NCBI RefSeq assembly: GCF_003148805.1
Contig: NZ_QGGX01000020.1
Span: forward strand, 1 to 64,000
DNA length: 64,000 nucleotides
Direction of reading: 5' to 3'
From: Aminobacter sp. AP02
GTDB taxonomy: Bacteria > Pseudomonadota > Alphaproteobacteria > Rhizobiales > Rhizobiaceae
Positions 5,084-15,811 of this stretch are shown here, piece by piece. Position 1 is the stretch's first letter. Each line of letters starts with the position of its first letter. The notes below the pieces were generated by a model. It was not told the origin of the DNA. It did not search any database and saw nothing but the letters and a program-made list of their open reading frames with translations. Made by a program: the position numbers and the translations under genes.

Positions 5084-6862
5084 CTATGATCGCCCCCAGA
5101 ATGCCTGGTAGCGAGGGCCATGAGACTCGGGCTGCTGCCCCTTCTCAGGGCGGTCAACCAAAATAGGTAGCGGAGCGGGTAACTCGGGTCCGACGATGAT
5201 CGCCTCGCCCTGAGCAAGCGATGGGATGAATGCTGCGGCGTCGCGGTCCAGATCGCCGCATGCTCGCTCGATGGTCTCGCGATCACGGTCGTTGGTCAGT
5301 CGGTGGACGAAGAGAGTACCGAGCTGGCTTAGAACGTCTGGAGGCACATCTCTGGGGCGTTGCGTGGCTATAGCTGTTGTCAGTCCGTACTTTCGACCTT
5401 CCTTCGCGATAAGACCAAAGGCATCCAGCAACACATGATTTGTATCATCACCTATGGAGCGACCGATAAATTGATGAGCTTCATCGAGGAAACAGACGAG
5501 CGGGCATTGCTGAAACACGTTCTGCCGCGCCAAGCCGAGCAGGTAACGGCCAAGTGTGTTCAATAACAGTTCTCGGGTGTTGTACTTGAAGCTGACATGC
5601 TCGAACGAAAGAACGAGAGCGTGTTGGTTAGGGTCTGAAATGAAATCTTGGATCTCCATGCAGATGTCCGTCCCTTCGTCGGAGAAGAGGCATCTCATTT
5701 CTGGAGAAGAAAGATAATTCTCAATGCGAACGTTCAACGAGTTGCAGGTCCCTAACGCAAAATCGTCGTGTAGCCCGTAAGAACCCATGCCGTCGTTTGT
5801 ATGCTGCTTAACGCACTCTTCTTTGATCTGGTCGGAGAGGAGGTGGATGTCGAAATCGCAAAGGTGCGAATCTAGTTCGCTCGACAATTCGATGAGCGCC
5901 AATGACAGCGCATGACGACTGTTTCCGGCCTTTCTCACAACCCCGCTTGGGCGAAGCTCGACAAAACCACGCTGCCCAACCGCATAGCGTTCACTGCCAT
6001 CTTCCATGGCTTTGATCGTGTACCGTAAGGGTTTTCGCCGCAGTGCCGTTGCCAACCTAAGGCTTTTGATCGCGCTACGGAGATTTGGCCCCTGCATCTG
6101 CACCGATGGCGTCAAAAGAGCATACAGATCGATCTCTGACAATTGTCGGTAAGGAAATCTCGCAAGCGGTTGCTTCTTGTTTGCTTTGGAGAACGAAAAC
6201 TCCTTCGCACCAGACACCCTGCCTGCAAATTCCCCGGTTGGATCGAAGAGTATGCACTTGCCGCCCAGCCGGACTACTTCATTCAGAAGCTTTGACAACG
6301 TCCAACTTTTACCGCCTCCGGTAGCCCCGAATATTCCACAGTGCCGCCCAAACAATTTTTCCGGCGGCATGGCAATCGAAGCATCCGTAATGCCGGACAG
6401 CGTGCCGAGGTTCACTAACAAACGCTCGTCTTTTCCTTGCTCGATCTCTCCCTGAAGGGCGTCTCGAATAGCGGCCGCGAGTGCTCCACCATCAGCCAGA
6501 TAAATTCCGTCGCCTACACGCGGCTTTACGTTGATTCCACGCGTCACCTTGTGCGTGGCCTTGTTGACTGTCGCAAGAAGCTGGGCCCGACCTTGTGGTT
6601 CGACACTCGCATCACGTTCCATCTGGCGCTCGAGCACAGCACGCTGGCGCTCTGGGACGAAGACGTCTGTTATCCGGCCAAGGATCGTCTCATGATCGCA
6701 ATCGACGAACACGAAGTCTCCGGTTGCGCCTCTCGCCAAGCCTCGTTGCCCGCTGGCAGCTAACGCCTTTGGAATAGTCAGCTCAATCGAAGACGCGCTC
6801 ACCCTCGTCACGGTGCCAACACGCTTATCTGGATCGATCAGCGCGATTATTCGGTCGGTCAT
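5084..6862 (-). CDS. herA: HerA-type ATPase of SIR2-HerA (Nezha-like) system
   Basis: A 592-aa HerA/FtsK-fold motor ATPase. The N-terminal ~120 residues fit a HAS-barrel. Walker A is GATGGGKS at residues 179-186 and Walker B is the CFLDEAHQF segment near residue 460, followed by an ATQRP sensor. Its ATG overlaps the SIR2 stop as ATGA, so the two genes are translationally coupled. SIR2 plus HerA is the composition of the Nezha antiphage system, in which HerA forms a hexamer that docks SIR2 and the complex depletes NAD+ or attacks DNA on infection. The assignment follows from gene pairing and motifs; activity is inferred. Confidence 0.88.
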   Translation of the reverse strand: MTDRIIALIDPDKRVGTVTRVSASSIELTIPKALAASGQRGLARGATGDFVFVDCDHETILGRITDVFVPERQRAVLERQMERDASVEPQGRAQLLATVNKATHKVTRGINVKPRVGDGIYLADGGALAAAIRDALQGEIEQGKDERLLVNLGTLSGITDASIAMPPEKLFGRHCGIFGATGGGKSWTLSKLLNEVVRLGGKCILFDPTGEFAGRVSGAKEFSFSKANKKQPLARFPYRQLSEIDLYALLTPSVQMQGPNLRSAIKSLRLATALRRKPLRYTIKAMEDGSERYAVGQRGFVELRPSGVVRKAGNSRHALSLALIELSSELDSHLCDFDIHLLSDQIKEECVKQHTNDGMGSYGLHDDFALGTCNSLNVRIENYLSSPEMRCLFSDEGTDICMEIQDFISDPNQHALVLSFEHVSFKYNTRELLLNTLGRYLLGLARQNVFQQCPLVCFLDEAHQFIGRSIGDDTNHVLLDAFGLIAKEGRKYGLTTAIATQRPRDVPPDVLSQLGTLFVHRLTNDRDRETIERACGDLDRDAAAFIPSLAQGEAIIVGPELPAPLPILVDRPEKGQQPESHGPRYQAFWGRS

Positions 6863-8205
6863 ACCGCGTCGCCTCTAATCTGATCCAGGCGCATCTGGAG
6901 GCGTTGCCGATCTGACTCGCCGGGAATCGCGGGAACAGCATCCACCAAATCTTCAAACCGACCATTCAGCAGGGTGACACGCGGATCACCTTCCACGACT
7001 AGGCGCGCTATCTTGTTTTGGTATTTCCTTGTCGGCAGCCCGACGTCGAGGAGGTGTTGGGGCGCTGGATGCGCATCCAGCTTCCAAGCGGGAATGAATG
7101 ATGGGTCGACCAAGATTAGTCGGAGGGAGAGGTTTGATTCCAACGCAGACCAAATCGGAGCGCTGATATGGTCGTCGGCGAACCCGAAGCCTGCAACCAA
7201 AAGTGCGGTGTCAGGTTCACGAAGAGCTGCTTGAAATGCCGCGAACATGTCAAGGTATGGAGTTTCGAAAGCTTCCTGATATTTGGTCGACCTTGGATAG
7301 ATCAGTACGGGTTTCAGGGCCGGATCGTTGGCTTGGGAACGTATGACGACGCCATCGGAGCGGCGTCGCCAGTCAATCGAGCCGTGAAGCTTGTAAAGGT
7401 GAAAGACGCCATCGATGTAATCGGCCTTCGTACCGGACGTCTGCCGCCGTACAATATCATGCTGGAAGTAGTCTCGATTGAAACGCTGTTCTGCGCTATG
7501 TGAAAAGCCATCTACGAGTACGACACCCAGTCGAGATGCAGCCTCTTCGACGCAGAGATCGTAGTTGGTCGTGAAGACCTTTACGCGAGGCTTATCTATA
7601 GCGCGCTTCGCGAATTTCTGGATTAACCCTCTGTGGGCGAGCAAATCGGTCGTCTGATCCACAAAATCGACCTTCTCAAGGATTGCACCTTCGGCTTCCT
7701 TGATGAAGGTCTTCAATTTTCTGATCGGACCTTCGGGATCGGATTTCTCGCTCTCCTGGGCCCGAGCCTCCATCAATTCAAGTTTCATCTTGCAGAGGCT
7801 TAGGAGATTTTCGATGTCGCCAGCTCGTTGCTTACCATTTTCCTCCTGCGGTAAGGTGCCGATGACATCCAGGACGACATTGTCGAAATCTGAGTGGTCT
7901 ACTAAATTCTCCTCGCAGACCTTTGATCTGGCCGCGTGCCACAGATCGCTCATGCCGGGCGCTTGCTGTGGGCCAGCGTTTTTCGCGCAGAAGGAAGCAC
8001 CTGCCCCAAGGAGGGTCAAAACGTTGGTCGCGTGGACAGCCTGGGTAAGGACCTCGTTTACGCGCCCTTTTGCGCCCGCGATCCTTTTACTATTGGCGTC
8101 GTCAGGATCAGCCTCCTGATCTTCCCAAGCGAGCCATTTTCCTTCCCGAGTTAAGAGGCGGAGATTCTCCGCCGCGCCGGGCTTATCCGTCCAAAAGTCG
8201 CTCAA
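6859..8205 (-). CDS. SIR2-domain NADase/effector of SIR2-HerA system
   Basis: A 448-aa SIR2_2-type protein. Motifs in order: LLGAGAS (about 65-71) for NAD binding, TNYD, LHGSIDW with the expected catalytic His, and GFGFADDHI near residue 340. Such SIR2 proteins act as NAD+ hydrolases or nucleases in abortive antiphage defence. The reading frame begins at TTG 8205, with GGGAG 6 bp upstream; no better in-frame ATG precedes the conserved N-terminus. It is the first gene of a two-gene operon with herA (4-bp overlap). Its promoter must lie in the 480-bp divergent gap to the right. Confidence 0.88.
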   Translation of the reverse strand: MSDFWTDKPGAAENLRLLTREGKWLAWEDQEADPDDANSKRIAGAKGRVNEVLTQAVHATNVLTLLGAGASFCAKNAGPQQAPGMSDLWHAARSKVCEENLVDHSDFDNVVLDVIGTLPQEENGKQRAGDIENLLSLCKMKLELMEARAQESEKSDPEGPIRKLKTFIKEAEGAILEKVDFVDQTTDLLAHRGLIQKFAKRAIDKPRVKVFTTNYDLCVEEAASRLGVVLVDGFSHSAEQRFNRDYFQHDIVRRQTSGTKADYIDGVFHLYKLHGSIDWRRRSDGVVIRSQANDPALKPVLIYPRSTKYQEAFETPYLDMFAAFQAALREPDTALLVAGFGFADDHISAPIWSALESNLSLRLILVDPSFIPAWKLDAHPAPQHLLDVGLPTRKYQNKIARLVVEGDPRVTLLNGRFEDLVDAVPAIPGESDRQRLQMRLDQIRGDAV

Positions 8206-9472: not shown

Positions 9473-10309
9473 TCAAGCGCCAGGGTCTGGCGTCGCTACG
9501 GATGGCAAATCCGCAGCGGCCTTTCTCCGACCCTCGACGTACGCCCTGCGACGTCGCCTCTTCGAGGCACCAACACGCCAAGTTGTCGACTTTACGATAT
9601 CACGATAAGTCTCAAACGCTTCTATCGCGGCTTCGCTACGCTCTTCTGCATAAAACTCGTCAACACGTCCGGGGAGGACTGCGGTAGCTCCGTTCTCCAG
9701 AGAGCAGTTGAAGATGTCGATCTCACCTGCAGGCTCGCGGGTCTTGTCGGCATTGAGCGTAAAACCAGCTTCGGCAACTGCCGCAACCAGACCGTCAAAC
9801 GCCACCTTCAGCTCAGCCTGATCGTTTCCGGACAGGCAGAGATCGTCCATGTAGACCGAGCATGAAATCGATGCCGGCAAGCTCCGTAGGAATGTGCCGA
9901 CAGGCGACTCCGCCAGAACCAGAGTTGCGAGAATGGGCGACTGGACAAACCCATAGGGCAGGACGTAGCCGCCGCCCTCGAAAGGGTTCTTCACGCACGA
10001 CCACTTCGCATAATGCTCAGGTTTCGGAACGCCGATAGCTTTCAGAACACGTTTCACGCGGTTTCTTCTGACGCTGTAGAAGAAGCGATTTATGTCAACG
10101 CGACAGAAAAATCCGTTCTTGCGGTGGAGATGAAGGGCCGCGACGTGGGAGCCCTCCTTGAAGTGATAGATGTAGCGGTCGAACTTATACTTCTTGGCTA
10201 CCTTCCGTTTGAGCTTGTTTCCAAGCTCAATGCTAAATTCGTTAGGCGCGAAGATCGGTTTGCCGTTCTTCCAATACGAATGCAGGAAATTTTCGAATGC
10301 CCCGGGCAT
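9473..10309 (-). CDS. reverse transcriptase, defence-type (class unassigned)
   Basis: A 278-aa RNA-directed DNA polymerase. Motif A is VDINRFF (catalytic Asp72), motif B is YGFVQSP (about 119-125), and motif C is YMDD (153-156) with both catalytic aspartates intact. There is no maturase, endonuclease or integrase domain, so it is not a group II intron RT. The C-terminus is short and very basic (KRRRRR). The size and motif B style suggest a retron or an Unknown-Group/DRT defence RT; I cannot assign the class. ATG 10309 is preferred over TTG 10336. A small membrane ORF overlaps its start in another frame. Confidence 0.82.
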   Translation of the reverse strand: MPGAFENFLHSYWKNGKPIFAPNEFSIELGNKLKRKVAKKYKFDRYIYHFKEGSHVAALHLHRKNGFFCRVDINRFFYSVRRNRVKRVLKAIGVPKPEHYAKWSCVKNPFEGGGYVLPYGFVQSPILATLVLAESPVGTFLRSLPASISCSVYMDDLCLSGNDQAELKVAFDGLVAAVAEAGFTLNADKTREPAGEIDIFNCSLENGATAVLPGRVDEFYAEERSEAAIEAFETYRDIVKSTTWRVGASKRRRRRAYVEGRRKAAADLPSVATPDPGA

Positions 10310-10421
10310 AGTTGACAACCTTGCTGACCAGCTCAATCAGGATATTCACATTCTTCAGGAGAAGAAGCGATACCGTCAAGGCCGATGCAGCAAGGTTCAG
10401 GCGCTTATGAATGTTCTTCAT
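10242..10421 (-). CDS. small single-pass membrane protein overlapping the RT start
   Basis: A 59-aa ORF, start ATG 10421, with GGAG centred about 6 bp upstream. The sequence has a basic N-terminus (MKNIHKR), a hydrophobic helix (about residues 10-30, LAASALTVSLLLL then NILIELV) and a basic tail. It overlaps the first 68 bp of the reverse transcriptase in another frame, so translation of the two could be coupled. Small membrane proteins do accompany some defence RTs, but no homologue is recognised here. It may alternatively be chance coding over an RT-linked non-coding RNA. Confidence 0.45.
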   Translation of the reverse strand: MKNIHKRLNLAASALTVSLLLLKNVNILIELVSKVVNYARGIRKFPAFVLEERQTDLRA

Positions 10422-10861: not shown

Positions 10862-11602
10862 CTAGATCGGTGATCTTGACCCCAAACCTTCGAAGACCGA
10901 TTTCAGCAACTCGCCTTCCAGCGTGCCATTAGTTAGCAGCGTATCCACGACTATCTCAATCTCAGCATTATTGCGCGATATCAGGTTCCGCGCTTCCATC
11001 TCGGCGTCACAGAGTCTAGCGTTTACCCGCTGCGCGAGTTCTTTGTGTGAAAGGAGCGTCCAGGCGATGTCCTTGACGTCCAAGTAAACCAACGACAAGT
11101 CGCCACCAAAGCCGAACTTGGTCTCCATGTCGACCGCCAGTCGGGTAGCCATGGCCAGATCGCTCCGTGCATCTCCGCCAGAACCGGCAACCACATTGCC
11201 TAGGATTTGCTCTTCCGCCACCCGACCAGCAAGGTAGATCACAAGCATTTTTTCGAGGTGATCTTCGGTGGCCTCCTGTTCCAGCGGCTGCTCCATTCTC
11301 ATCCAGCCTCCGCCGCCCATCGTCTCGATGGATATTGCGGAGATGCGCCCAACTCCCAATGTCAGATGCGCAACGAAATGCCCTGCCTCATGGATTGCCA
11401 ATCGTCTGCGAACATGAGCGGGGAGAGGCGGCTTGGCTTGCCCCAATGCCTGAAGCAGATCATTGAACTCAAGAGTGCGATCAGCGCGGCGAGCCGCTTG
11501 CCTGCTTTCGCGCACAATGCGTTCGACATCTGCTGGGCTTAGCCCAGCTGCGCGGCGTCCGAGTTCGCGCAGAACCTGATCTGTATGTGACTGTGTATTC
11601 AT
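10862..11602 (-). CDS. FtsH-like M41 zinc peptidase, stand-alone subunit
   Basis: A 246-aa protein. Residues 71-75 are HEAGH, the M41 zinc motif, followed by AGRVAEE and a DARSDLAMATRLA segment that carries the third metal ligand as in FtsH. Residues about 10-50 (GLSPADVERIVRESRQAARR) match the second half of an AAA+ lid, the part normally inside FtsH. There is no membrane segment. ATG 11602 follows a strong GGAGAT site and starts 11 bp after the ATPase stop, so it is the third gene of the module. It presumably docks on the separate ATPase to make a two-chain protease. Confidence 0.85.
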   Translation of the reverse strand: MNTQSHTDQVLRELGRRAAGLSPADVERIVRESRQAARRADRTLEFNDLLQALGQAKPPLPAHVRRRLAIHEAGHFVAHLTLGVGRISAISIETMGGGGWMRMEQPLEQEATEDHLEKMLVIYLAGRVAEEQILGNVVAGSGGDARSDLAMATRLAVDMETKFGFGGDLSLVYLDVKDIAWTLLSHKELAQRVNARLCDAEMEARNLISRNNAEIEIVVDTLLTNGTLEGELLKSVFEGLGSRSPI

Positions 11603-11613
11603 GGTATCTCCGA

Positions 11614-13419
11614 TCAATTCAGCCATGAACGGAAAGGTTTCCCTGTCGAGCTGCTGTGGTCATACATATCTCCGCTTTTCGTCTCATTTGCCGACAGGAT
11701 CGGCAGTGCCGACATGACGACGCGGCTGATGTCCTGCCCCAGGTGAGTGCGGAAAATTCCCGAAAGGGCCTCGATATCGGGAAGCGGGATGTCGAACCGC
11801 TTTTCCAATCGGCCCGAGCGCAGCAGAGCCGCATCGATGTTGTCTACGCGATTTGTGGCCCCCAGCACGATGACCCCTTCTGTTTTGGCGATGCCGTCGA
11901 GAAGCTCCAAAGCCCTGTTGACGACGTTGTTCCAGTAGTCGCTGTATTCTCCGCGTGCGTGCCGATGTCCGAGACCGTCAGTCTCGTCAATGAACAGGAT
12001 GCAGGGTGCGAGATCACGGGCTTCCTCGAAGACGTTAGACATCCTTTCCAACACATCCCCGAGATGACCGCGCTGGAGCCAGGTGGCCGCAGAAGTGGCC
12101 ACCAATGGGATTTGTAGCGTGTTGGACAGCGCCCTGGCGAACGTGGTTTTGCCCGTTCCGGGCCGGCCGACGAGCAGGACCTTGCTCTGCACATCACGCC
12201 ATGCAATTCGATGTTCCTTGTAGTGGCCCAGATCGATTTGCAGATCGAGACCCCAGTCTCGTGCTTTGCCGTAGCCACTCAGGGTCGACAGATCATCGGC
12301 GAACACGCCCAATGCCTGGCGATCTTCCGGCTTTGCGGGCATGATTATGTCGCTTCCGGTAGGCTTACCTTTCTTCGTTTTACGGTCCTTGAGCGCGTCC
12401 CGCTGCTTGTCGACCGGACCTGCCCGCTCGACTTGTCGCTGTTTCTTGAAAAAGCTGATCTCCGAGATCTTGTACGCCATCTGCTTCGCAGAGAGATCAG
12501 GCCTGATTGCTATCGCAATGTCCGATAAGGATACAGCCGACAGGTCGAGAGCCCCGTCCAGGTCGGGAAGCTCCACGCTGGTCGCGTTCCGTGCTACCAG
12601 CCTGATCATTTCGTAATCCAGTGGACCACAGTCCAGCATCAAATGCGCCGCAGCACCCAGCTCTTCCGGAAACTGGTCGATTGTCCCGGCCAGCCCAAAC
12701 ATCGGATATCCCGTCATCAGCGAATACCCGATTTGCGATGATGTTTCGGAACGCTTCTGGTGACGGGAGAATAGAATGATTTTCCAATCGGTGGCTGGAA
12801 GTCTGGCGAAGGTGGGATGCTCCTTCGGGCCGTCAAGTGCATAACCATCGGCGAATTTCGCCATTCTCCCGAACAGGAGACCCTCTTCAAATAGCTGCTG
12901 GAAAATCCGGTCAAACTCCAGTGCCTGGCAAGCTATGGCGATGATCGGCTGGTCCTTTTTGAAGATGTCGAGCAACTGCCTTGCTGAGAGGCCCGACCTT
13001 TGCGCAGCGCGTTCCAACAGGAATATCGCCGCCAAATGGACCGGGCTGAGAGCTTCGGTCAGTTGGCAAAGAAGACGACGCGCTTTCGGATCTGAGGCCG
13101 ACCAGATTTCTCTACGCTCGATCTCAGACCTTTGCAGATACGGCGTTGGATCTGAAGACTGGGCGTCGTCGAGTGCATCGAACCTATACTCACCTGGACG
13201 GTCCAGTTCGGTTGCACGAAGCACATTCTTCATTTTCCTGACCGTAAGCACCTGGTCACCCCACCGGACAAGACGTTGCACGTCTCGGCCATTGACAGCC
13301 GTCGAGGACACTTCAAACATGCCAGCCAGGATGGCTTTTTGAATAGCGGCATCACGCGCGGCGCGCTTCGCCTGGCGGATAAGGAACCTTGAAAGTACGG
13401 ATATCATGGCGACGCACAT
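11614..13419 (-). CDS. soluble FtsH-like AAA+ ATPase
   Basis: A 601-aa protein with ~400 uncharacterised N-terminal residues, then an AAA+ module: Walker A GRPGTGKT (418-425), Walker B CILFIDETD, and an SRH with a GATNR segment and RSGRLEKRFD. The closest textbook relative of the AAA part is FtsH. The chain stops within the lid domain, whose remaining helices appear at the start of the next gene. It has no membrane anchor, unlike FtsH. ATG 13419 overlaps the upstream stop as TGATG, so translation is coupled. A longer GTG start at 13464 is less likely. Confidence 0.85.
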   Translation of the reverse strand: MCVAMISVLSRFLIRQAKRAARDAAIQKAILAGMFEVSSTAVNGRDVQRLVRWGDQVLTVRKMKNVLRATELDRPGEYRFDALDDAQSSDPTPYLQRSEIERREIWSASDPKARRLLCQLTEALSPVHLAAIFLLERAAQRSGLSARQLLDIFKKDQPIIAIACQALEFDRIFQQLFEEGLLFGRMAKFADGYALDGPKEHPTFARLPATDWKIILFSRHQKRSETSSQIGYSLMTGYPMFGLAGTIDQFPEELGAAAHLMLDCGPLDYEMIRLVARNATSVELPDLDGALDLSAVSLSDIAIAIRPDLSAKQMAYKISEISFFKKQRQVERAGPVDKQRDALKDRKTKKGKPTGSDIIMPAKPEDRQALGVFADDLSTLSGYGKARDWGLDLQIDLGHYKEHRIAWRDVQSKVLLVGRPGTGKTTFARALSNTLQIPLVATSAATWLQRGHLGDVLERMSNVFEEARDLAPCILFIDETDGLGHRHARGEYSDYWNNVVNRALELLDGIAKTEGVIVLGATNRVDNIDAALLRSGRLEKRFDIPLPDIEALSGIFRTHLGQDISRVVMSALPILSANETKSGDMYDHSSSTGKPFRSWLN

Positions 13420-13772
13420 CAATTGGATGACATGATGTGTGCTCTTTGACCCAGGCGATACCACCTCGACCGCGTACGCGCCCAGCTGAGCTCTTCGCTA
13501 AAAGCAACTATGTCGGATGTTACGATCTCACGTCGGTCGCCATGCAGAATTGGATGGCCAGATGAGAGCCCTGTTAGACAAGAGGTTCGGCGAAACCCTA
13601 AACCCCAGAATTCAAGAACTGGTGCCTCGTTAGGGAAAAGGGCGTCCGAGGGTCCGAGTTTTTCACGCCTGGCTATCTCAGCCAAATCCGCCGCTAATGC
13701 AAATAATCGTGCTGCCTCGAATTTCAGGATATTTCGAACCCGCTCATCAGTCTCCGGACCAAATACCAGCAT
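13419..13772 (-). CDS. DUF6634-like small protein
   Basis: A 117-aa soluble protein. Its C-terminal half, with a SGHP segment, then TSDIVAF and an SWARTRSRWYRLG ending, resembles small DUF6634 proteins of Rhizobiales; this is recalled, not searched. ATG 13772 is chosen because GGAGG lies 4-5 bp upstream; upstream in-frame codons would cover the operator array. It is the first gene of the operon with the AAA+ ATPase and the M41 peptidase, so it could be an adaptor, substrate or antitoxin-like partner of the split protease. Function unknown. Confidence 0.68.
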   Translation of the reverse strand: MLVFGPETDERVRNILKFEAARLFALAADLAEIARREKLGPSDALFPNEAPVLEFWGLGFRRTSCLTGLSSGHPILHGDRREIVTSDIVAFSEELSWARTRSRWYRLGQRAHIMSSN

Positions 13773-13840
13773 GTTTCCTCCTCTGATTCGCATTTGTGAA
13801 AGGGAGGCTGCAAAGGCTTCGCCCCTGGCCCGCGCATACA

Positions 13841-13894
13841 GAATGCATTCACGTGCATTTAAAATGCACCACAATGCATTTCAAGTGCATTTTT
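13841..13894. promoter_or_regulatory. TGCATT palindrome array (probable operator)
   Basis: The divergent gap between the DUF6634-like gene and the XRE gene holds GAATGCATTC (13841-13850), GTGCATTTAAAATGCAC (13853-13869), AATGCATT (13873-13880) and a half-site TGCATTT at 13886. The three palindrome centres (13845.5, 13861, 13876.5) are equally spaced by 15.5 bp, and same-strand TGCATT copies begin at 13844, 13854, 13875 and 13886, close to whole helical turns. It is most likely the binding site of the adjacent XRE regulator controlling both directions. Confidence 0.75.
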
Positions 13895-13939
13895 AGGAAA
13901 ATTTGGCGGAAAAAGATCGATTGGAATAAACATGAAAAA

Positions 13940-14188
13940 ATGGAAGTTCCCGCCGAATTGTTACGCGCTTCAAGGATCGCGCTTGGCATGAGCCAGGCAG
14001 AGCTAGCTCAGGAAGCTGGGGTGGCGCTGAGAACTGTTGCAAAAATGGAAACCAGCGGCACGGTCCGATGGGAAACCCTCCGGAAAATCCAAAAAGCATT
14101 GGAAGCGAAAGGCATAAGATTCTTGGATCGCGATGAGAAAAATGGCTTCGGATTAAGGTTGCCATCGGATTGGCCCAAGGCTCCCTGA
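13940..14188 (+). CDS. XRE-family helix-turn-helix regulator
   Basis: An 82-aa Cro/CI-type DNA-binding protein. The HTH covers about residues 5-60 (LRASRIALGMSQAELAQEAG, then LRTVAKME), followed by a short tail typical of single-domain XRE proteins that replaces a larger effector domain. ATG 13940 is the only in-frame ATG just before the domain; no strong ribosome site is visible. It is divergent from the split-protease operon with the TGCATT array between them, which suggests autoregulation and control of that operon. Confidence 0.85.
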   Translation: MEVPAELLRASRIALGMSQAELAQEAGVALRTVAKMETSGTVRWETLRKIQKALEAKGIRFLDRDEKNGFGLRLPSDWPKAP

Positions 14189-14507: not shown

Positions 14508-15811
14508 GCAGCCACTACGACCTGCCCATCGCCCTTGGACTGATGGCCGCTCTCGGTGCCGTGCCGGGCGATGCGCTCGCCGCCTATGTCGTGCTCGGCG
14601 AGCTCTCGCTTGACGGCACCATAACGGCCGTGGCCGGCGCGCTTCCCGCGGCAATCGGGGCGAATGCCGAAGGCAAGGGGTTGATCTGTCCGGCGGCCAG
14701 CGGGCCGGAGGCCGCTTGGGCCGGCGCCGACATCGACATTCTCGCACCACGCAGCCTGATCGCCATCGCCAACCACTTCCGTGGCACCCAGGTTCTGTCG
14801 CGGCCCGAGCCCGGCATTCGTGCCACGGCGCGCGACCTGCCCGACCTTGCCGACATCAAGGGCCAGGAAAGCGCCAAGCGCGCGCTCGAGGTGGCTGCTG
14901 CCGGCGGCCACAACCTGATGATGGTCGGGCCCCCGGGTGCCGGCAAATCGATGCTGGCGGCGCGCCTGCCCTCGATCCTGCCGCCACTTTCGCCCAAGGA
15001 ACTGCTCGAAGTCTCGATGATCGCCTCGGTCGCCGGCGAACTGGCCGAGGGCAAGCTCACCGACAGGCGGCCGTTCCGTGCGCCGCATCATTCGGCTTCC
15101 ATGGCCGCGATGGTCGGAGGTGGCCTCAGGGCGCGGCCTGGCGAAGTGTCGCTCGCCCATCATGGCGTGCTGTTTCTCGACGAACTTCCGGAGTTCACGC
15201 CTCAGGTGCTCGATTCCCTGCGCCAGCCGCTCGAAACCGGTGAATGCATGATCGCTCGTGTCAATCACCGCATTACCTATCCCGCGCGCATCCAGCTCGT
15301 CGCGGCGATGAACCCGTGCCGCTGCGGTATGGCCGGCGAGCCCGGCTATCGCTGCCTGCGCGGCACGCGCTGCCAGAGCGACTACCAGGCGCGCATCTCG
15401 GGCCCGCTGCTCGACCGTATCGACCTGCGCATCGAGGTGCCGGCGGTGTCGGCGGCGGACCTGATCCGAACCGGCAAGTCGGAGGCAAGTGCCGATGTCG
15501 CCGCGCGTGTCGCGCGGGCGCGCACCATCCAGCGCGAGCGGCTGGAGCGCCATGGCGTCACTGGCGCGACCACCAATGCGCAATGCGCGGCCGGTTTGAT
15601 CGAAGACATCGCCACGCCCGATGCAGCGGGGCTCTCGCTGCTGAAAGATGCCAGCGAAAAGCTCAACTTTTCCGCCCGCGCCTATCACCGCGTGCTCAAG
15701 GTGGCGCGTACGCTTGCCGATCTCGACGGCAGTGACACCGTCGGCCGCATCCATCTTGCCGAGGCGATTTCGTACCGCATCAGCGCGGAGCGCGTGGCGC
15801 AGGCAGCGTAA
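14508..15811 (+). pseudogene. comM: comM/yifB, 5' end removed by island
   Basis: ComM (YifB) is a hexameric AAA+ helicase for branch migration in natural transformation, about 510 aa. Here the family sequence begins abruptly at SHYDLPIALGLMAALGA near 14510; about 90 N-terminal residues are missing and an in-frame stop lies at 14474. The rest is intact: Walker A GPPGAGKS, Walker B VLFLDELPEF, a Cys-rich MNPCRCG segment and the C-terminal Mg-chelatase-like domain. Restart at ATG 14543 is conceivable but would lack the N-terminal domain. GC rises sharply here, so this is the island-chromosome junction. Confidence 0.88.

What the first reader, a model, noticed from the sequence alone, without database searches (positions are those of the whole stretch)
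10862..14188. Two-chain FtsH-like protease module with its own regulator
A soluble AAA+ ATPase with a ~400-residue N-terminal domain and a separate M41 peptidase divide one FtsH-like machine, with the AAA+ lid split between the chains. Translational coupling, a DUF6634-like first gene and a divergent XRE regulator with a symmetric operator make this look like a self-contained, inducible module in a defence island. It could be a new defence or stress protease system.
Basis: partly seen in the sequence, partly recalled or inferred. Interest (0 to 1): 0.75.

Follow-up and report, generated by a model that had tools for sequence, protein, structure and literature searches.

The report
Two-chain soluble FtsH-like protease module
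Next to other anti-virus genes, this soil bacterium carries a protein-shredding machine of the FtsH kind that seems to have lost its membrane anchor and is encoded as two separate chains, probably as part of an inducible defence or mobile-DNA conflict system.

Summary
DUF6634, an AAA+ ATPase and an M41 peptidase form an apparent operon, facing a divergent XRE gene across two palindromes also seen in a 78% ortholog. The gene split is not a lone frameshift: 22 of 44 family loci, including a second copy in this genome, break at the same place in the AAA+ lid. They form one clade (100/100) with two apparently re-fused members. In seven of them DUF6634 lies between the chains. Catalytic residues are invariant in the rows aligned; all four genes are under purifying selection. 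No FtsH-like anchor is evident by hydropathy. The N-terminal region is tentatively a second, degenerate AAA module. DUF6634 adjoins the protease at 22 of 35 sites; XRE faces DUF6634 at 11. Neighbours of 41 other loci match 69 PADLOC families against 1 for as many chromosomal control proteins; the window's module lies beside SIR2-HerA and a reverse transcriptase. Best reading: a soluble two-chain FtsH-like protease, with DUF6634 as probable adaptor, serving anti-phage or mobile-element conflict. Function is inferred. Many split copies travel with plasmid or integrase genes and fused relatives occur in viral contigs, so a mobile-element role is the main rival.

The parts
10862..11626 (-). M41 zinc peptidase chain (254 aa); carries the C-terminal part of the AAA+ lid at its N-terminus
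   Evidence: Pfam M41 E 7e-17; profile vs FtsH structures E 8e-31; H79, E80, H83 and D156 invariant in 22 rows
11378..11392 (-). HEAGH zinc-binding/catalytic motif
   Evidence: sequence; alignment A2
11456..11575 (-). second part of the AAA+ lid, encoded on the peptidase chain
   Evidence: AAA_lid_3 residues 18-57, below cut-off here, above cut-off in the paralog (29.1 vs 27.2); alignment with FtsH
11614..13407 (-). AAA+ ATPase chain (597 aa), stop overlaps the M41 start by 13 nt
   Evidence: Pfam AAA E 6e-30; start conserved in the ortholog, dN/dS 0.18; Walker A/B, sensor 1 and arginine-finger columns invariant in 20 rows
11716..12276 (-). active AAA+ domain up to the first lid helix
12421..13059 (-). 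N-terminal region, tentatively a degenerate AAA-like module without Walker A; its second half is shared with fused relatives
   Evidence: AF2 model aligned along p97 D1-D2; hhalign split vs fused N-terminal regions 95.8%, E 7e-9 over 93 columns; profile test against the AAA domain not significant
13419..13772 (-). DUF6634 protein (117 aa), first gene of the apparent operon
   Evidence: PF20339 36.1 bits over cut-off 27; next to the protease at 22 of 35 sites
13853..13869 (.). operator palindrome GTGCATTTAAAATGCAC
   Evidence: largely conserved in L037
13874..13890 (.). second, imperfect operator palindrome, 21 bp from the first
   Evidence: partly conserved in L037
13940..14188 (+). divergent XRE/Cro-type regulator (82 aa from ATG 13940)
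   Evidence: Pfam HTH_3 E 2e-7 on the longer listed frame; ortholog in L037

Best explanation
The operon encodes a cytosolic, ATP-driven protease of the FtsH type made of two chains. SHOWN by sequence: an AAA+ ATPase with intact ATP-binding and arginine-finger residues; a separate M41 zinc peptidase with intact catalytic residues; an AAA+ lid divided between them at a place conserved across a whole clade; a DUF6634 gene in front; an XRE gene facing it over a double palindrome. INFERRED: the two chains dock through the shared lid, so the ATPase ring is completed only when the peptidase binds, giving an FtsH-like double ring. DUF6634 is an adaptor or specificity factor that hands substrates to the ring. 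XRE represses the operon until an invader or stress relieves it. The biological role is anti-phage or anti-mobile-element conflict, by degrading an invader protein or an essential host target.
For: The split rows are one clade (100/100) with a conserved lid break. DUF6634 lies between the chains in L038-L042, L047 and L055, so a programmed frameshift cannot be the general explanation. Two nested members are fused with about 20 extra residues in the lid (231-232 from Walker A to HExxH against 210-215 in 19 other fused rows), as expected of a re-fusion, which implies that the chains work together. FtsH-type motifs are invariant in the aligned rows. Peak hydropathy of the window ATPase is 1.52 against 2.41 for the genome's own FtsH. 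DUF6634 adjoins the protease at 22 of 35 sites, one of these degraded. Defence context: window neighbours SIR2 and HerA (PADLOC 1.8e-85, 7.3e-141) and an RT; in G009 the module lies between an MmeI-type type IIG RM gene and a PDC-S06 gene. Test beyond these: 103 neighbours of 41 other loci match 69 PADLOC families (Gabija, Shango, Hma, DISARM and others) against 1 family (mad3, 2 members) for 103 control proteins.
Against: No functional data. PADLOC gave no match for the M41 chain or DUF6634, and its IetA hits cover only the AAA domain. Many split loci, including four on plasmids, share neighbours c1, c3, c4 and in part integrase-like genes or repABC, as a mobile-element backbone would. Viral contigs carry fused relatives, and a PHROGs family of unknown function matches both chains (phrog_30773), so the activity is not confined to host defence. 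DUF6634 and XRE occur without an FtsH-like gene (L177, L179). Hydropathy is no clean discriminator: 13 of 44 raw family frames reach 1.6. The defence comparison used whole-chromosome controls, so accessory regions in general would look enriched, the tool counts models rather than proteins, and Pfam on the same neighbours lists mostly ordinary families among the commonest (ABC permeases 4, GGDEF 3 of 103).
Confidence: 0.5

Rival explanations
1. Mobile-element maintenance: the protease controls the life cycle of the integrative element or plasmid that carries it, for example by degrading a repressor, partition or integration protein, and defence genes are only fellow cargo.
For: c1 is found in 21 of 44 loci, c3 and c4 in 12 each, integrase-like c7 in 6 and c12 in 4 (more). 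Split copies on four rhizobial plasmids, one beside repABC. Some fused copies near TniA/TnsB- and TniQ-like genes. Fused relatives in viral contigs.
Against: In the window and G009 loci no c1, c3 or c4 cluster member was found and the two sit in different defence neighbourhoods. Neighbour sets are rich in defence models. Gene order and partners vary.
Confidence: 0.3
2. Toxin-antitoxin-like or abortive unit: the protease (or DUF6634) is harmful when freed, and XRE with DUF6634 or the protease holds it in check.
For: Divergent XRE facing DUF6634 at 11 sites; Bosea copy next to an Xre/MbcA/ParS-type gene.
Against: The gene number and order vary. No toxin-like fold was recognised, but the DUF6634 model had no confident structural match at all.
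Confidence: 0.12
3. Accessory stress or quality-control protease duplicating housekeeping FtsH in the cytosol.
For: Intact FtsH-type catalytic residues.
Against: Patchy distribution (29 of 151 relatives), a long branch between the family and the genome's own FtsH, island location.
Confidence: 0.08

Closest known systems
FtsH / M41 AAA+ zinc proteases (TIGR01241)
   Same: AAA+ domain with Walker A/B, sensor 1 and arginine fingers, M41 peptidase with HExxH and a third Asp ligand, same order of domains
   Different: Two chains with a lid split between them, no evident membrane anchor, a long N-terminal region that may be a degenerate AAA module; 113 and 69 bits against the equivalog cut-off of 600
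Fused FtsH-like relatives of this family (no name found)
   Same: Same AAA-M41 core, partly homologous N-terminal region, DUF6634 and sometimes XRE nearby
   Different: Single polypeptide; in several loci with a metallophosphoesterase or a possibly TnsA-like gene
IetAS (AAA ATPase IetA + S8 protease IetS, anti-phage; description recalled)
   Same: Two-gene ATPase plus protease; AAA domain matches an IetA model at 68 bits
   Different: Peptidase is an M41 zinc enzyme, not subtilisin-like; similarity confined to the AAA domain
Cdc48/p97 tandem AAA+ ATPases
   Same: Predicted model of residues 118-568 aligns along p97 D1-D2
   Different: First module lacks Walker A; no sequence-profile support

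Membership tests
FtsH / M41 | HExxH motif plus third Asp zinc ligand | tested here: met
   H79, E80, H83, D156 invariant in 22 rows; aligned with an FtsH structure's sequence
FtsH / M41 | AAA+ domain with Walker A, Walker B, sensor 1 and arginine fingers | tested here: met
   invariant columns in 20 rows; motif names recalled
FtsH / M41 | ATPase and peptidase in one polypeptide | tested here: not met
   two genes in 22 of 44 loci incl. the window
FtsH / M41 | N-terminal transmembrane anchor | tested here: not met
   peak hydropathy 1.52 for the 597-aa chain vs 2.41 for own FtsH; hydropathy only, no dedicated TM predictor
FtsH / M41 | score above the FtsH equivalog model cut-off | tested here: not met
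   113.3 and 69.1 bits vs 600; each chain alone cannot fill the model
IetAS | IetA ATPase over its whole length | tested here: not met
   best model matches only residues 424-577
IetAS | S8 serine protease partner | tested here: not met
   partner is Pfam M41
Cdc48/p97-type tandem AAA | two AAA modules | tested here: inconclusive
PF20339 DUF6634 | score above the gathering cut-off | tested here: met
   36.1 vs 27 bits
Anti-phage defence system | recurrent location among defence genes | tested here: met
   69 vs 1 PADLOC families, 103 proteins each; controls are chromosomal, not other accessory regions
Anti-phage defence system | protects a host against phage | not testable with these tools
   needs plating assays

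The most novel reading that the evidence does not exclude
A new kind of anti-phage system: a soluble AAA+ zinc protease with two AAA modules whose ATPase ring is completed in trans by its peptidase chain, targeted by DUF6634 and switched on through an XRE/double-palindrome operator, with the split version in one family and fused versions across Alphaproteobacteria and beyond.
Probability: 0.35. Interest if true: 0.82.

Novelty: new variant of a known kind. Interest (0 to 1): 0.62.

Why it matters
FtsH is described with an N-terminal transmembrane domain followed by ATPase and protease domains (passages of PMC9020784). A cytosolic relative whose ATPase and peptidase are separate genes, split inside the AAA+ lid, would let the question of how ring and peptidase communicate be tested by mixing two natural chains. 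If the defence role holds, M41 proteolysis joins the list of anti-phage activities, and DUF6634, a family with no paper in the library searched, gains a role as a partner of AAA+ machines.

Full report
WHAT IS THERE. On the minus strand run DUF6634 (13419-13772), an AAA+ ATPase (11614-13407) and an M41 peptidase (10862-11626); an XRE regulator (13940-14188) points the other way. Between DUF6634 and XRE lie two palindromes 21 bp apart (13853-13869, 13874-13890). In the G009 ortholog most of both is kept while part of the intergenic DNA has drifted. All four genes are under purifying selection against G009 (dN/dS 0.15-0.20).

THE SPLIT IS REAL. Searching 151 related genomes with the ATPase gave 44 matches in 29 genomes at E <= 1e-40. 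Wide flanks were taken for the 43 places outside the window. Together with the window, 22 loci carry ATPase and M41 as two genes (L037-L057 and the window) and 22 carry them in one reading frame (L058-L079; L067 is interrupted, L070 is cut by its contig end). In L050 and L054 the ATPase itself is in two frames. The split ATPases end after the first helix of the lid ('..GILxHHLGxDL') and the peptidase chains start with a free stretch followed by 'LAxxAxGxTGADIERIVREARxxARR'. That second piece is recognised as AAA_lid_3 weakly in the window's M41 (20.1 bits) and above cut-off in the paralog (29.1 vs 27.2). The genome itself holds this second, 38-43% identical split module on another contig.

A tree of 43 family rows plus FtsH puts all 22 split rows in one clade (100/100) with two fused rows nested inside, L058 and L059 (L067 was left out). 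Those two have 231-232 residues from Walker A to HExxH, 19 other fused rows have 210-215, so they look like a secondary re-fusion of the split form. In seven split loci (L038-L042, L047, L055) a DUF6634 gene lies between the two chains, in part overlapping their raw frames. Further split pairs are on four rhizobial plasmids and in L081, L183 and L233. In a class-wide sample the split-chain M41 profile matched 7 of 385 genomes at 1e-40; judged by open-frame length only, the window's own genome alone has the short separate frame. In a phylum-wide sample it matched 38 of 398 at 1e-30, and short frames occurred only in the window's own family. The split thus appears to be a lineage feature of one Rhizobiaceae-like family, while fused relatives are wider: a contig assigned to Gemmatimonadota (L083) and viral contigs also carry them. 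A relative in the same genus is Aminobacter aganoensis (L080 has the contig length of G006:C11).

PARTNERS. DUF6634 was found at 35 places in 26 of 151 genomes and in 0 of 14 control genomes. Seventeen lie within 2 kb of an ATPase match; four more adjoin a more distant fused relative and one a degraded one, so 22 of 35; seven of the 13 others are in one genome (G086). At L166, L177 and L180 a DUF6634 gene lies next or close to an AAA+ ATPase with no M41. These three and a 512-aa protein in L233 are one family (32-59% identical), and in L233 that protein stands between DUF6634 and the split pair. This makes DUF6634 look like a general partner of AAA+ machines. XRE faces DUF6634 head to head at 11 sites: window, L037, L074, L076, L175, L176, L177, L179, L181, L233, L235. 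AF2 gives DUF6634 a long helix and five strands (pLDDT 79.7) with no confident structural match.

CONTEXT. The window's module stands beside SIR2 and HerA genes and a reverse transcriptase; the island splits comM: its N-terminal 78 codons are on contig C27, the rest starts at window 14508. In G009 the module lies between a type IIG restriction enzyme and a PDC-S06 gene, with GmrSD nearby. To test this beyond the prompting loci I scanned 103 neighbours of 41 other loci and 103 proteins from 17 hand-placed chromosomal stretches of 15 related genomes, 13 of which hold the family: 69 PADLOC families at 1e-20 against 1. The tool counts models, not proteins; the 25 listed include Gabija, Shango, Hma, DISARM, BrxH and type II methyltransferase models. 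Pfam on the same neighbours also shows many ordinary families. Against a pure defence reading, many split loci share the neighbours c1, c3 and c4, and several have integrase-like genes, and one plasmid copy is beside repABC. Some fused copies sit in Tn7/Tni-type surroundings.

MECHANISM. Two chains that complete one lid most simply mean that the ATPase is only finished when the peptidase binds. That is my inference from position and from the re-fused copies; nothing here shows binding. Adaptor, inducer and target are inferences too. I give 0.5 to a two-chain protease in defence or element conflict, 0.3 to element maintenance.

KNOWN OR NEW. Searches of the open library (listings) and passages of a review of FtsH did not show this arrangement. 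Membership in FtsH proper fails on single chain, anchor (by hydropathy) and model score; it should work like FtsH by its catalytic motifs. I rate it a new variant of a known kind.

Noticed in passing
window 14508-15811, G000 contig C27:43719-43952 (L278), and L079 3263-4168: comM (yifB, Mg-chelatase-like) is split by the island after codon 78; a comM frame also lies a few kb from the fused module of another genome (L079), so comM may be a recurrent insertion spot.
   Followed up: partly
window 9473-10336: A reverse transcriptase (RVT_1 E 1.5e-16) of 287 aa beside the module; matches many defence RT models weakly, no clear class.
   Followed up: no
window 5084-8205: SIR2-like and HerA-like genes with overlapping ends, matching PADLOC SIR2 and HerA models strongly.
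   Followed up: no
L233 5550-11083: Extended operon: XRE facing DUF6634, a second AAA+-family protein of 512 aa, the split ATPase-M41 pair, then a metallophosphoesterase-like frame.
   Followed up: partly
L177 2878-7926: XRE facing DUF6634, AAA+ ATPase without M41, metallophosphoesterase-like gene, next to a Lamassu LmuB gene: same operon type without the protease.
   Followed up: partly
L050, L054, L162: In these split loci the ATPase's N-terminal region and AAA domain are in separate frames (annotated as two overlapping proteins in L162): decay, sequencing error or a three-chain form.
   Followed up: no
cluster c1, e.g. L057 11165-12178: Unnamed ~350-aa protein with a PD-(D/E)XK-like stretch (read by eye) present in 21 of 44 loci, usually next to the module; no Pfam or PHROGs match.
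   Followed up: partly
cluster c6, e.g. L069 7122-7748 and L165 10915-11529: ~210-aa possibly TnsA-like protein upstream of several fused copies; its weak Bosea match is annotated as TnsA endonuclease N-terminal domain.
   Followed up: partly
L184-L232 (viral contigs): Viral contigs carry fused M41-AAA proteins, several nearer to this family's model than to the genome's own FtsH (profile against single sequence, so only a rough comparison).
   Followed up: no
G086, six contigs (L167-L172): One genome carries seven DUF6634 genes, some with c1, c4 or integrase-like neighbours, with no FtsH-like gene found in the stretches taken.
   Followed up: no
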